Under the pieces are notes generated by a model. That model saw nothing but the letters and a program-made list of their open reading frames with translations. It was not told the DNA's origin and did no database searches. A program made the position numbers and the translations under genes. Shown here piece after piece: positions 1,953 to 7,696 of a stretch of DNA of 64,000 bases (position 1 is its first letter; every line of letters begins with the position of its first letter). This DNA comes from Bacteroidales bacterium (lineage in GTDB: Bacteria > Bacteroidota > Bacteroidia > Bacteroidales > Muribaculaceae), in NCBI GenBank assembly GCA_015061055.1, contig SUXH01000007.1, positions 1 through 64,000 of the forward strand. Direction: 5' to 3'.

Positions 1953-4748
1953 TTATTCGGCGTAATCAACATTTTGAAATGGACAATAAGATGTTTGTAG
2001 AATTGCTTTATCGTTATCAATCTTCCATATATAATTAAAGTCAAATCCTTCATAACTACTTTGTTCTCCAGGATTTGAAAGAGACTTATCATTTATATAA
2101 TTCTGTTCATCTCCATTTGTATAATAGGTGTAATCATCATAACAATCCGGGCCATACTTATATGCCCCAGCAATAGCATAATCGGCACTTCCATAATTAA
2201 CAAGGCACTTGAGATAACAATAACGGTCGGAATAACCTATTATACCACCAGAACTATTACCATCCGTTGTAACCGTTCCCATATTATAGCAGTCGTGTAC
2301 AAACGAATCTTGGTCCTTCCAATCAACAGCACCTTCCTCGGCATAACCTACAATGCCTCCCACTCTCGATTCTCCACTGCTCGACACTTTTCCTTTATTA
2401 GCACACCAACCAATTTCCAAATTTGTCGACTGATATAGCCCACCAGGATCTTTACCCATACTTCCTATGATACCTCCTGTGCGACAACTATTTGAACTGT
2501 AAACCTCGCCATGATTAGCACAATAGTAAACGCGCCCCTTAGTGGTTGGAATTAAGCCAACAACACCACCGGTCGTACTACTGCTACCTGTAATCTTTCC
2601 GTAATTGGCACAAGAGAGTACTTGAATATAATAATCATCATCGCCATGCATATAACCAACAACACCACCTACATCGGTAGAACCCGTAACCGCTCCTACG
2701 TTTACACAATAATTGAAGAAAGTGCGAGTCTGAGAAATATCAGAATAGTTGGCTGCACCTGCAATACCGCCAACGTTTTCACGCCCTACAATCGTTCCGT
2801 AGTTGATACAATAATATAACATTCCGTCCTTATTGAATTTTCCACATATACCACCAACATCTTTACCAGAAGATGCATTTACCTGACCGCCAAAAGTACA
2901 ATCCGATATTTTACAATCGGTTGTGGTCAACTCTGCACTACCCACGATTCCTCCAACACTATCAACACCATTGACTGTAGCTCTCACATTAACGCCCTTG
3001 ATAGACGATTTTATCGAATGTCCGACAGCACCACCCACACGATTTCCTCCTTGAACCGTTCCTTCAAAACAAGGTTTGAAACTATCACTTTTGGGTATTG
3101 AGCCTGATAGGCTGACACTGGACGTGGTTTGGAAAATGACATCATTCATAAAACCAACCAATCCGCCAACACACCAACCGGCAGAAACAGTAAGAGCATC
3201 ATTAAACTCAATGTCCAACATATCCATTTGCAGACGCACTGTATTACCAGCCAATTCGCCGAATAATCCACCCGCAATTTTATCACCCGCAACGATACCA
3301 TTCTCGCCTAACAGCAATCTTATATTTTCGTAAAAATTTACATAGATATCAGTAGCTTTCCCTACAAAACCACCAACATATTCCTTACCATAAATATTTT
3401 TGTTCTTGACAGTACTTGTCCTAGCAAATTCGCAACTACCTCCACCTTCAAGTGCGCCACTAAAACCTCCCACATATCGTCCACCTCTGATATATGAACC
3501 TATTGTACAATCTACGATTTTAAGAGAGCAGTTAGAATCTTCAATTTTAGCATATCCAACTACCCCCCCAATATAATCCTGAACTGCTCTGATTGATGTT
3601 TTCACTTCACAATCTTCAAATTGCACATTACCATTGACCGACAACACAGCTCCAATAACACCTCCTACATAAGAATCAGAAGCATAAATAGGAGCCAACG
3701 ATTCATCGGACACATCGTGATTTATTTCCACATCCTTGATTTCAAAGCGAGAATTACTAAGACACCCTATAAGTCCACCAACATAACGACTTCCACCCAA
3801 GGAAATAAAATCATAGCCTTTGTTTCCTGATGATTTTATTTTTATCACAGAATTCTCAACCCTTCCTATTAAACCACCAACACACTCATTAGATGTAGAA
3901 TTGGAGTAAATTCGAATCTTGTAAAATACTTTGTCCACTTCCACAGATCCACTTGCCGAACCGGCCAATGCTCCAGCATTTTTATTTACATTACCAATAG
4001 AACCATCTATATTGAGATTACAAATTTTAGCACCATCTAAAAGTTCTGAGAACAGACCAATATTTTTATCAATATCGTTATCGCTCGATCCAATATAATC
4101 ATATTCGATAGTATAGTTTCCGCCATCATAATTTCCAGCAAAATCCTCACAGCCATATCCACGATTAGTATTACCATAACTCGGTGCATTAGCCTTAAAT
4201 GACGCAGTTTGCTTAAAATACTGCCCCTTTCCTCTAAACTCATCGGTTGATAGTATATATTTAAATAAATCAAAGTCCTCGGCAGAGCTTATGATATAAG
4301 GATCATCCAGTGTGCCATTACCTTCCGCAAGAGTATATTCAGCCATTACATTGAAAATGCAGTGAAGCATATGTTTGCGAATTTCTACTTCAAGTTTTGA
4401 TTTTCGCAATTTGCCATCGATAGAAAAGCAAGTCATAATATAAGCACCATCGTTCATCTGCCTGATATCGTTCATAGGAATTTCAAGCAGATAGTTAATG
4501 CCACTGGGTTTTATTCTCGCAACGATTTCGTATTCGGTATGTTTCTCGTTTGAAAAGAAACGAAGAAGAATTTCATCTACGCCATCAACCTTATTCATAT
4601 ATTTACGAGGTATAAAACACACCGATTTTTCACCTTGAATATACGATCCGAATTCATTTATTTCGGATTTAAATTCCTCTTTATCTTCACATGATAGCAT
4701 TATAAATATCATTATTAAAGATACTATAACTGATAATATTCTTCTCAT
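1953..4748 (-). CDS. GLUG-repeat surface lipoprotein (downstream copy)
   Basis: A 931-residue predicted lipoprotein. The N-terminus has a hydrophobic signal ending in a lipobox (LSC, Cys about residue 20). After a roughly 110-residue N-terminal region and a second region around residue 145 (sequence GTLDDPYIIS), the protein consists of about 18 repeats built on the GLUG motif, seen as xVGGxxGxx units such as VGGLIG, VGGVVG and TGGIIG. These units are expected to stack as a right-handed beta-helix. GLUG proteins are usually surface adhesins or glycan-associated proteins. The gene starts 32 bases after the stop of the related upstream gene, so the pair is an operon. Ligand unknown. Confidence 0.85.
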   Translation of the reverse strand: MRRILSVIVSLIMIFIMLSCEDKEEFKSEINEFGSYIQGEKSVCFIPRKYMNKVDGVDEILLRFFSNEKHTEYEIVARIKPSGINYLLEIPMNDIRQMNDGAYIMTCFSIDGKLRKSKLEVEIRKHMLHCIFNVMAEYTLAEGNGTLDDPYIISSAEDFDLFKYILSTDEFRGKGQYFKQTASFKANAPSYGNTNRGYGCEDFAGNYDGGNYTIEYDYIGSSDNDIDKNIGLFSELLDGAKICNLNIDGSIGNVNKNAGALAGSASGSVEVDKVFYKIRIYSNSTSNECVGGLIGRVENSVIKIKSSGNKGYDFISLGGSRYVGGLIGCLSNSRFEIKDVEINHDVSDESLAPIYASDSYVGGVIGAVLSVNGNVQFEDCEVKTSIRAVQDYIGGVVGYAKIEDSNCSLKIVDCTIGSYIRGGRYVGGFSGALEGGGSCEFARTSTVKNKNIYGKEYVGGFVGKATDIYVNFYENIRLLLGENGIVAGDKIAGGLFGELAGNTVRLQMDMLDIEFNDALTVSAGWCVGGLVGFMNDVIFQTTSSVSLSGSIPKSDSFKPCFEGTVQGGNRVGGAVGHSIKSSIKGVNVRATVNGVDSVGGIVGSAELTTTDCKISDCTFGGQVNASSGKDVGGICGKFNKDGMLYYCINYGTIVGRENVGGIAGAANYSDISQTRTFFNYCVNVGAVTGSTDVGGVVGYMHGDDDYYIQVLSCANYGKITGSSSTTGGVVGLIPTTKGRVYYCANHGEVYSSNSCRTGGIIGSMGKDPGGLYQSTNLEIGWCANKGKVSSSGESRVGGIVGYAEEGAVDWKDQDSFVHDCYNMGTVTTDGNSSGGIIGYSDRYCYLKCLVNYGSADYAIAGAYKYGPDCYDDYTYYTNGDEQNYINDKSLSNPGEQSSYEGFDFNYIWKIDNDKAILQTSYCPFQNVDYAE

Positions 4749-4780
4749 AAATAAAAGTTTTTATATGTTTACATATTAAT

Positions 4781-7696
4781 TTATTCTCGCATTTCAGACA
4801 TATTTGGTATGGCAAAACTTGCTCCCGATGGAATATCCCAAGCCTTATCGGTACCAACCGGCCAAGGATAAGCAGAAGGATTAGTGAGATCCTCAAATGA
4901 GATTGTAGATCCATCATAAGTAGTGTCGTCAAGAATCACAACATCACTAAGATTTCCACCAAAATTACGATAATATAAGTCAGCAATATTTGACACATTG
5001 CTACTATTTTTCCACACCGAAACACAACGCTTCACCGATGACCTCGACTCCATAGTACCCACAAAGTGCCCACCCTGAACGCCTGCGGTATTAAGACAGT
5101 CATAGACTTGACCATTATCTGCAAGGTGACCCACAAGACCTCCCATATAGTACAACTCCTTATTCTTAGTTGTCACCTCACCGGCATTGATGCATTGCGA
5201 CACAATGACTGCATTATTAGTATTTTCCCAAATCATTTGAGATACAGATGTAGCACCCCCTACTACAGTAGTTGCCATTCCCAAGGCTGTGAATACCAAA
5301 CTCACTCCACCCGTAGCACATGCCGAGGCTACAGAAACAATAGCTGTAGCCAAAATAGCAACACCCGATATTGCTGCGTGTACAATATTCGACACCTTGT
5401 TCACATTACTCACATCATCAGCAAGTTCGTCGCGTTTTTTATTAATATTGGTATTGATAATAGAATCATTAGACTCTGTGGTATAGTAATCAAGTTGAGA
5501 ATTGGTAACATTAGTGTAATTAGTACAAATTGTAGAAGGATTAAGCGAAGTATTATAAAGCGCATACGAACGTCCCTCATCGCTACGCAAGGCGGCAATA
5601 GTACCTTCAACCTGTTTCATATTATCTTCCACTGCCTCACTAACATCGGTTCTGATACTCGCCCATTCTTGTTCGTCATAATGCACAGCAAAAGGATAAA
5701 CGACCAAAGTTCCATCAATGCTCGCTAATATTATAGGTGTAGCCACGTTCACCACTTGTAGCACAAATTTCAAAGCCCCTGCAGCACCATCGATAGCAAC
5801 ACCGATAATAGGACCCACAAAGAATGACGAAGCAACATCGACCACCACCATAATAGTTTGAGCCTTAGCTACGCCCGTTGTTTCGTCTATGTGTCCAAGC
5901 TCACCCACAATGCCACCCACACATCCATTTCCAAGTACTTTAGCGAAGTTCCCACAGTGATGAAACACCGAGTTGTTGGTGGCAATAGCACAAATACCGC
6001 CTGTATGTGTGCTATTATTGCTTTGTGAAGTAACCGTACCGAAGTTCTGAGAAAAAGCAACCGACCCCATCTCAGTTTTTGACACAATACCCGACACATA
6101 ATTTTGCCCCGAAATATTACCTGAGTTGACTGTATTATGCACCACAGCAAGCGACGTGTTCCCCACACCACCCGAGACATAATCACCTGACCCCGTAACA
6201 CTACCAGTATTATAACCTCCATAACATCCGAATTGTGCTTCTCCACACAATCCTCCCACATTATTTGTTCCCTTGATAGTTCCTTCGTTACCGCAATAAC
6301 GCAAATAGGTATTATTATACACATAAGGATCCGACACTGAACCAGAGCCGGCAACTCGTGTAGTACCTATTATACCTCCAACACCTTCATATCCACTCAC
6401 AGAGCCTTGATTAATCGATGCCGTAATGAACGACATAGTAGAACCTCCGCAAATACCTCCGGCACCATATCCAGCTGTTCCGCTTTCAGAAGGTTTATAA
6501 AGTTGTGCCCCAATTATCGTTGCTGCATTTCGGCAACCGTTTACAGTAAGCGTATCGCAACTGCCCACTATACCACCGGCACCCGAATACTCGGATATAA
6601 TTTGGCAAGTAGATGTGGTGTGACAATCGTTAATAGACAAGAACGAGTATATTCCCGTTCCACCCACTATACCACCGGCATTGCAAGTGGCCTGTACCGA
6701 CACATTATCAATCTTACACGATGATATGATAGCCGCCGCATTGGTATCTAAGCCACCCAAGATACCACCCATCATAAGAGTGTTTCGTTTGGTTTCGCTA
6801 TCATAAGCCGACACCGAAGAATTGGAAACAGTACAATTACTAATAGCAGAGGTGACACGATTACCTCCGGTCTGCAACACACAACCGGCAAGTACCCCTA
6901 CCGCACAATCGCCTTTGATAGTACAATTGTCTATATTAAGGCTATCAATCTTAGCATCGACTATATACCCGAAGAATCCTACTCCACTCATATCCTTCGT
7001 ATTCGACCACAAATTCTTAATGGTGTGAACTACTTTATCGGTAGATGCACCAATGTAAGTGCCACGAAACGGATTGGCAGCAGTACCTATTGGTAGCCAC
7101 CCTAAGTTGTTATCGCTTCGATAAGATGCATAATCCATATCAATATCTGCAATCTGTCTATATGTAGAACAAACAGCTTCCTCATCACCATCTTCTATTG
7201 CAAAAGTGAGTTCAAGCAAATGCGAATAGCTGGAAATAATAAAAGGATCTTCCTTTGTTCCACTTCCATACATATTCATCGACGAACTAAAATTATTTAA
7301 TAGTGAGGTTTCTCCATTTTGCAATCTAACCTTGCAACCAAGACCGTAATGAGCTTTCTTATATTTCTCATTTTCCGCGTTATCAAGTTGGTATTCAAGA
7401 TAAAGAATCTGATATTCTCCATCTTTCAATCCATTTATAAGGTTTAGCGTAGGTGTGCCATCTATCTTGTCGAAAATCCCCTCACGCTTGATTATTGTGC
7501 CATCAGGAGCTTTGATAAAACAGGTAAACGAAGGACGGTCGAAACTATGTAATCCGTCAGAAATCCGAATTAATTGATGAGCACCTATATATAAATCGTT
7601 TTCATCTGTAGCATTAGGTGTTTCAAGAGAATCATCACAAGATGCAATTCCCAATATGCAAAATACACATAATAATCGGCTTAGAAATTCTGCCAT
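4781..7696 (-). CDS. GLUG-repeat surface lipoprotein with inserted hydrophobic domain
   Basis: A 971-residue predicted lipoprotein: signal peptide with lipobox (ASC, Cys about residue 20), then an N-terminal domain and GTKEDPFIIS around residue 150, the same layout as the neighbouring paralogue. About 11 GLUG-type repeats follow to roughly residue 605. The repeat array is then interrupted by about 230 residues without GLUG motifs: a long hydrophobic stretch (about 612-665), a polar helical region with Asn/Thr-rich sequence, and a second hydrophobic Ala/Gly/Val-rich stretch (about 769-822) shaped like a helical hairpin. GLUG repeats resume at MGGLVG before the C-terminus. The insert is absent from the paralogue. 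It could be a membrane-interacting module or a passenger domain; this is inference. Confidence 0.85.
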   Translation of the reverse strand: MAEFLSRLLCVFCILGIASCDDSLETPNATDENDLYIGAHQLIRISDGLHSFDRPSFTCFIKAPDGTIIKREGIFDKIDGTPTLNLINGLKDGEYQILYLEYQLDNAENEKYKKAHYGLGCKVRLQNGETSLLNNFSSSMNMYGSGTKEDPFIISSYSHLLELTFAIEDGDEEAVCSTYRQIADIDMDYASYRSDNNLGWLPIGTAANPFRGTYIGASTDKVVHTIKNLWSNTKDMSGVGFFGYIVDAKIDSLNIDNCTIKGDCAVGVLAGCVLQTGGNRVTSAISNCTVSNSSVSAYDSETKRNTLMMGGILGGLDTNAAAIISSCKIDNVSVQATCNAGGIVGGTGIYSFLSINDCHTTSTCQIISEYSGAGGIVGSCDTLTVNGCRNAATIIGAQLYKPSESGTAGYGAGGICGGSTMSFITASINQGSVSGYEGVGGIIGTTRVAGSGSVSDPYVYNNTYLRYCGNEGTIKGTNNVGGLCGEAQFGCYGGYNTGSVTGSGDYVSGGVGNTSLAVVHNTVNSGNISGQNYVSGIVSKTEMGSVAFSQNFGTVTSQSNNSTHTGGICAIATNNSVFHHCGNFAKVLGNGCVGGIVGELGHIDETTGVAKAQTIMVVVDVASSFFVGPIIGVAIDGAAGALKFVLQVVNVATPIILASIDGTLVVYPFAVHYDEQEWASIRTDVSEAVEDNMKQVEGTIAALRSDEGRSYALYNTSLNPSTICTNYTNVTNSQLDYYTTESNDSIINTNINKKRDELADDVSNVNKVSNIVHAAISGVAILATAIVSVASACATGGVSLVFTALGMATTVVGGATSVSQMIWENTNNAVIVSQCINAGEVTTKNKELYYMGGLVGHLADNGQVYDCLNTAGVQGGHFVGTMESRSSVKRCVSVWKNSSNVSNIADLYYRNFGGNLSDVVILDDTTYDGSTISFEDLTNPSAYPWPVGTDKAWDIPSGASFAIPNMSEMRE

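What the first reader, a model, noticed from the sequence alone, without database searches (positions are those of the whole stretch)
4781..7696. Hydrophobic helical hairpin inserted into a GLUG-repeat lipoprotein
Seen: in the 971-residue protein, GLUG repeats are interrupted by about 230 residues with two long hydrophobic, Ala/Gly/Val-rich stretches (about residues 612-665 and 769-822) separated by polar helical sequence, after which repeats resume. The tandem paralogue lacks it. Known: alpha-pore-forming toxins and colicins carry such hydrophobic hairpins flanked by amphipathic helices. Inference: a membrane-acting passenger or anchor displayed on a beta-helical surface protein.
Basis: partly seen in the sequence, partly recalled or inferred. 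Interest (0 to 1): 0.6.

Follow-up and report, generated by a model that had tools for sequence, protein, structure and literature searches.

The report
Gut surface protein pair with membrane-hairpin
A large surface protein of gut Bacteroidales carries a conserved all-helical insert that looks built to push a hydrophobic hairpin into a membrane, and it was found beside a partner surface protein wherever the neighbourhood could be read, which suggests an undescribed two-part membrane-acting system, though no function has been tested.

Summary
The 971-aa lipoprotein A (minus strand, 4781-7696) is a GLUG solenoid interrupted by a ~234-residue helical insert (aa 602-835). The insert is not a one-off: it sits in the same place in about 60 related gut Bacteroidales proteins (Muribaculaceae, Parabacteroides, others). 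All 57 aligned inserts keep both hydrophobic blocks despite ~24-38% mean identity. The paralogue B is a true partner: wherever the neighbourhood is readable B adjoins A, and among 148 genomes A and B occur strongly in exactly the same nine. A 62-sequence AlphaFold model (pLDDT 72) of a homologue shows solenoid rungs on both sides and six helices between, one of 51 residues running into a glycine-rich hairpin. Sequence and fold searches point, always below significance, to two-helix-tongue alpha-pore-forming toxins (MakA, AhlB, SmhB, HBL-L1, NheB) in the same register; a reversed-sequence control loses most of this signal. Best reading: an undescribed two-gene surface system whose A component presents a membrane-inserting helical module. 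Membrane action is inferred; toxin-family membership is not established.

The parts
4781..7696 (-). Protein A: 971-aa GLUG solenoid lipoprotein carrying the helical insert
   Evidence: orthologues in about 60 named loci
7640..7696 (-). Lipoprotein signal peptide, aa 1-19
   Evidence: Hydrophobic N-terminus; Cys20 invariant in A2
7628..7639 (-). Lipidated Cys20 followed by acidic residues (CDDS), resembling the Bacteroides surface-export signal CS(D/E)2
   Evidence: motif from PMC6222051
5894..7261 (-). N-terminal GLUG-type beta-solenoid, aa ~146-601
   Evidence: Repeating GGI-G / N-G pattern with invariant glycines; rungs flanking the insert superpose on a solenoid stretch of IgA1 protease (7jgj, Z 6.8, 83 residues, rmsd 1.6)
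5192..5893 (-). Helical insert, aa 602-835
5678..5875 (-). Hydrophobic block 1: two helices, aa ~608-638 and 643-673, broken by a mostly conserved acidic residue and Gly-Pro
   Evidence: Model helices of homologue L101 mapped onto the window; low-confidence part of the model (pLDDT about 46-63); conservation
5480..5674 (-). Polar helical middle, aa ~675-739 (two helices and a loop), least conserved part (24% mean identity)
5585..5587 (-). Near-invariant Arg704 (56 of 57) at the end of a helix, before a loop; structural or cleavage residue (speculative)
5228..5470 (-). Long polar helix running into the hydrophobic hairpin, aa ~743-823; hairpin proper aa ~769-823 with Gly-Gly turn 796-797 and conserved G806, G813, G814
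   Evidence: best conserved part of the insert (41% mean identity)
4784..5191 (-). Solenoid resumes, then C-terminal end, aa 836-971
   Evidence: Strands after the insert in the model; Pfam GLUG trace at 5096-5152
1953..4748 (-). Protein B: 931-aa GLUG lipoprotein partner without the insert, 32 bp downstream of A
   Evidence: PF07581, 5e-13; co-occurrence with A

Best explanation
A and B form a conserved two-gene surface system of gut Bacteroidales. Both are lipoproteins with an acidic motif after the lipidated Cys, so probably shown on the outer surface (motif shown, location inferred). Their GLUG repeats form long beta-solenoid rods. In A, at about two thirds of the length and so probably near the membrane-distal end, a ~234-residue helical bundle leaves the rod and returns to it. 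Its core is a long polar helix that continues into a Gly/Ala/Val-rich hairpin; at rest the hairpin is probably shielded by block 1 and the other helices. On contact with a target, probably a neighbouring bacterium, the bundle opens and the hairpin inserts into the target membrane, with B as co-receptor, scaffold or second pore component. This is how the two-helix-tongue components of ClyA-family tripartite toxins (AhlB, MakA, SmhB) work, here mounted on a surface rod. Shown: conserved module, predicted helices, pairing with B. Inferred: surface location, membrane insertion, target, role of B.
For: Conserved architecture: the insert is present in every sufficiently complete A protein in named genomes; 57 of 57 aligned inserts have both hydrophobic blocks and only 2 of 57 a hydrophobic middle. 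The hairpin, the membrane-relevant part, is the best conserved part of the insert with a fixed glycine pattern. AlphaFold model with 62 sequences, pLDDT 71.8: six helices between solenoid rungs, hairpin at the end of a 51-residue helix. PDB profile search: MakA entries rank first (E 0.014-0.019), profile positions 84-214 aligned to MakA ~112-244, covering most of MakA's reported 198-246 membrane segment (PMC8617504); AhlB aligns through its tongue (182-229). NCBIfam: weak hits to HBL-L1 (5 members), NheB, MakA, XaxA, MakE, and to Ssp4 (7) and SipB. Foldseek over 350,542 PDB chains: SmhB pore first, MakA third, both insignificant; VIA-align top row SmhB, Z 8.4. Reversed-sequence control: no alpha-PFT in the PDB list, and 1 versus 5 ClyA-family NCBIfam member-hits for the same 20 sequences. 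A and B co-occur exactly in 148 genomes and their pairwise identities correlate at r = 0.92 (no species-tree control). Two-component and lipoprotein pore-forming weapons are known in this phylum (CDCL PMC11169675, BSAP PMC12853789).
Against: No search reached significance; every alpha-PFT resemblance is sub-threshold and partly driven by composition (the reversed control still gave one NheB and one RTX hit). Some unrelated proteins score as well (an ice-binding protein at 0.003; chemoreceptor and ExbB/TolQ long helices). VIA Z 8.4 with rmsd 12.5 is within what unrelated helical models give. The model is of a homologue (L101), not of the window protein, and block 1 and the hairpin are at pLDDT ~46-71. 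No third gene that could be an immunity gene is conserved; B could serve but nothing shows it. Exporting such a hydrophobic hairpin through Sec to the outer surface is a problem the hypothesis must solve.
Confidence: 0.45

Rival explanations
1. Docking or oligomerisation module: the insert is a stable helical bundle whose hydrophobic helices are permanently buried, used to hold A to B or A to A on the surface (adhesin or assembly part), with no membrane insertion.
For: A and B always co-occur and their sequences change together; a glycine-rich hairpin also suits tight helix packing; no significant toxin match.
Against: Does not explain why the long uncharged hairpin is the best conserved segment of the insert, nor the recurring weak matches to membrane-hairpin families in the same register.
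Confidence: 0.32
2. Extra anchor in the producer's own outer membrane: the hairpin tucks back into the cell's own membrane to lay the rod flat or hold it.
For: Hydrophobic hairpin in a lipoprotein.
Against: The protein already has a lipid anchor and the insert lies ~450 residues of solenoid away from it; alpha-helical hairpins are unusual in outer membranes (general knowledge).
Confidence: 0.1
3. Host-directed: the same membrane-inserting module acts on host cells rather than on bacteria.
For: ClyA-family relatives act on eukaryotic cells (PMC8617504, PMC6602965); carriers are gut commensals of many animals.
Against: Patchy presence inside commensal families (37 of 397 genomes) and precedent in the phylum favour bacterial targets (PMC11169675).
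Confidence: 0.1

Closest known systems
ClyA-family alpha-pore-forming toxins, two-helix-tongue components (AhlB, SmhB, MakA, HBL-L1, NheB)
   Same: Long helices ending in a ~50-residue hydrophobic two-helix segment; work as multi-component systems; top but sub-threshold sequence and fold matches in the same register.
   Different: Those are free-standing ~340-400 aa proteins with a five-helix tail; here ~234 aa are inserted into a beta-solenoid lipoprotein, the partner is a GLUG solenoid, and no homology reached significance.
Bacteroidota CDC-like (CDCL) two-component toxins
   Same: Two-gene system of Bacteroidota in which one component is a membrane platform and the other inserts (PMC11169675).
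   Different: CDCLs are CDC/MACPF relatives and one described operon has a lipoprotein immunity gene; here helices, no such domain, no conserved third gene.
Bacteroidales secreted antimicrobial proteins (BSAP)
   Same: Surface lipoproteins with an export signal, receptor-guided killing of relatives (PMC12853789).
   Different: BSAPs have a MACPF domain; none was found here.
GLUG-motif surface proteins (PF07581)
   Same: Scaffold of A and B; five GLUG stretches in B, flanking rungs of the insert match a solenoid stretch of IgA1 protease.
   Different: B and the rest of the solenoid have no helical insert.
SseC/SipB/YopB translocators, ApoL, RTX N-terminal hydrophobic domains
   Same: Hydrophobic helical hairpin after an amphipathic coil; weak recurrent hits (SseC 12 of 57 members, best E 1.7e-4).
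   Different: Below every curated cut-off; different secretion routes and contexts.

Membership tests
ClyA-family alpha-pore-forming toxins (HBL/Nhe/Ahl/Mak) | Significant profile match to a family member or curated model | tested here: not met
   Best PDB E 0.014; NCBIfam best 6.4e-4 (NheB), far below curated cut-offs
ClyA-family alpha-pore-forming toxins (HBL/Nhe/Ahl/Mak) | Same fold: five-helix tail plus head with hydrophobic tongue | tested here: inconclusive
   Foldseek E 1.5 (SmhB), VIA Z 8.4 at rmsd 12.5; rows span mainly model residues 95-259
ClyA-family alpha-pore-forming toxins (HBL/Nhe/Ahl/Mak) | Membrane insertion and pore formation | not testable with these tools
   Needs liposome or cell assays
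GLUG-motif surface proteins (PF07581) | GLUG repeats over the gathering score | tested here: inconclusive
   Met by B (48.9 bits); A gives only a sub-threshold trace, but the A profile scores B proteins at ~50-145 bits
Bacteroidota surface-exposed lipoproteins (LES type) | Lipobox Cys followed by an acidic export motif, C-S-(D/E)2 or similar | tested here: met
   CDDS in the window; Cys-X-(D/E)-(D/E)-like sequences in most A and B where the Cys was located. Surface location itself was not tested
CDCL / BSAP (MACPF-type) toxins | MACPF/CDC domain | tested here: not met
   No MACPF match in A or B in Pfam at E <= 5
SseC/SipB translocators | Curated model match | tested here: not met
   PF04888 15.8 bits against cut-off 30.2; SipB 20.2 against 828

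The most novel reading that the evidence does not exclude
A new class of two-component, surface-anchored alpha-helical pore-forming weapon of gut Bacteroidales: a ClyA-type two-helix tongue inserted into a beta-solenoid lipoprotein (A) that acts on neighbouring cells together with an obligate solenoid partner (B), possibly unlocked by cleavage at a near-invariant arginine as CDCLs are by a surface protease.
Probability: 0.28. Interest if true: 0.8.

Novelty: new variant of a known kind. Interest (0 to 1): 0.6.

Why it matters
No library searched names this insert or this pair (Pfam, NCBIfam, PHROGs, PADLOC) and no paper found describes it. It occurs in cultured gut strains (Parabacteroides distasonis NM39_I3, P. 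massiliensis SN4, Parabacteroides sp. ZJ-118, Muribaculaceae Isolate-037), so it can be tested. If it acts on membranes it adds an alpha-helical, rod-mounted mechanism to the known beta-barrel weapons by which gut Bacteroidales decide which strains live together.

Tried and rejected
Plasmid and phage collections: no full-length relative; viral contigs: none. PADLOC: none. Whole-protein profile and the N-terminal 600 residues against PDB: no sequence match. First AlphaFold run with 10 sequences on the window insert: helical but pLDDT 44.5, not used for conclusions. BFVD fold search: only tape-measure and unnamed helical proteins, insignificant. Matches at E ~0.001-0.01 in other Bacteroidota (e.g. 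L185, L186, L187) lie in proteins with no A or B similarity. I first read 6ezv as an independent HBL-L1 hit; the paper shows it is MakA, so the top three PDB hits are one protein. Absence of a fold from the VIA list is not evidence. A single-scale whole-protein shuffle was weak; a two-window test replaced it.

Full report
What is there. The finding's ORF is on the minus strand, 971 aa, intact. It has a lipoprotein signal with Cys20, an N-terminal domain, GLUG-like repeats, an insert at aa ~602-835, more repeats and a C-terminal end. Two hydrophobic 50-aa stretches starting at 617 and 768 are beyond chance (0 of 2000 shuffles) and absent from the paralogue. No Pfam model claims the insert; the best sub-threshold hits for the window protein are SseC, ApoL and Goodbye at E ~0.01.

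The insert is a family trait. A single-sequence search of 148 related genomes found nine loci in eight other genomes, full-length ~960-1000-aa relatives, at E 1e-11 to 1e-21. With a profile, 37 of 397 genomes of the same family have it strongly (leaving out two weak rows), plus members in a second family that includes Parabacteroides. A scan of named genomes gave 61 loci: Muribaculaceae, Parabacteroides distasonis and P. massiliensis, and MAGs labelled Prevotella, Marinifilaceae, Alistipes and Mediterranea. In an alignment of 57 inserts all have a hydrophobic first block and a hydrophobic last block; the middle is polar in 55. Mean pairwise identity over 52 proteins is 44% in the N-terminal solenoid, 31% in block 1, 24% in the middle and 41% in the hairpin. 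Gly797 is invariant there, and Gly806, 813 and 814 are at 92-96%. Arg704 is present in 56 of 57 inserts, alone in an otherwise variable stretch.

The neighbour is a partner. In 57 of 61 named loci both genes were found on the same strand, in nearly all with less than 100 bp between them; of the other four, L120 has B next to an A cut by the contig end, and three (L091, L103, L111) are cut by contig ends where B could lie. Order is occasionally B-A (L108, L148) and one locus is A-B-B (L146). Among 148 relatives the nine genomes with B (E < 1e-60) are exactly the nine with a strong A match, own genome included. Flanking genes differ between lineages; the commonest recurring upstream neighbour, in about a dozen loci, is a TPR-transmembrane-AraC-type regulator. 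The pair therefore behaves as one unit with a scattered distribution. No phage, plasmid or viral record holds it.

Structure. The first AlphaFold run was poor. The second used 62 sequences, a central homologue (L101) as query and about 36-42 flanking residues each side: mean pLDDT 71.8, pTM 0.53. Strands flank helices 43-72, 78-110, 112-142, 154-172, 176-226 and 229-256. Mapped to the window these are aa 608-638, 643-673, 675-705, 721-739, 743-793 and 796-823. The last two are a hairpin whose first arm extends some 26 polar residues beyond the membrane-like part. Rungs from both sides superpose together on one stretch of IgA1 protease (7jgj 934-1028, 83 residues, rmsd 1.6, Z 6.8), so the insert appears to interrupt an otherwise continuous solenoid.

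What it resembles. A profile of the inserts against all PDB sequences ranks MakA first (E 0.014-0.019, three entries of one protein) and includes AhlB (E 2.5) through its tongue. The aligned hairpin falls on the segment the MakA paper gives as two transmembrane helices, 198-246 (PMC8617504), and on AhlB's tongue G191-A222 (PMC6602965). NCBIfam members hit Ssp4, HBL-L1, NheB, SipB, MakA, XaxA and MakE, all weakly. Foldseek over all PDB chains puts the SmhB pore first and MakA third at E 1.5 and 2.8; VIA's top row is SmhB with Z 8.4, within the range of unrelated helical models. As a control, 20 diverse inserts read backwards gave no alpha-PFT in the PDB list and one ClyA-family NCBIfam hit, against MakA in the PDB list and five such member-hits forwards. 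So the resemblance is directional and in register but not significant, and part of it is composition.

Mechanism. The anatomy fits a rod that holds a latent hairpin module away from the cell: lipid anchor at the N-terminus, acidic export-like motif (CS(D/E)2 in Bacteroides, PMC6222051), about 450 residues of solenoid, then the insert. I rate membrane insertion into another cell, with B as second component, at 0.45, and a purely structural docking module at 0.32. Known Bacteroidota precedents for paired or lipoprotein pore formers are CDCL (PMC11169675) and BSAP (PMC12853789); both are MACPF/CDC types and that domain is not found here. The conserved Arg704 invites the thought of Arg-specific activation as in CDCLs (cleavage sites R70 and R62), but this is speculation.

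Limits. No experiment, no A-B complex model, a model of a homologue rather than of the window protein, limited confidence around block 1 and the hairpin tip, and co-variation of A and B without a species-tree control.

Noticed in passing
L064, L068, L071, L073, L078, L080, L083, L086, L100, L107, L112, just upstream of A (about positions 4000-5900): A TPR-transmembrane-AraC-type regulator lies just upstream of the pair, same strand, in about a dozen loci including Parabacteroides; none is upstream of A in the window.
   Followed up: partly
L085 and L086 (Parabacteroides massiliensis SN4): One genome carries two separate A-B pairs.
   Followed up: no
L180:4841-7663: A strongly diverged A whose first hydrophobic block is much more polar while the hairpin is kept; a diverged B precedes it.
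   Followed up: partly
L179:5491-7330 and L121:3195-6304: Broken copies: A disrupted in one Parabacteroides-family genome, B split into two frames in one Muribaculaceae MAG; intact copies exist elsewhere.
   Followed up: no
G000:C42:58438-58767 (window's genome, outside the window): A third GLUG protein (open frame 1066 aa), over the Pfam cut-off.
   Followed up: no
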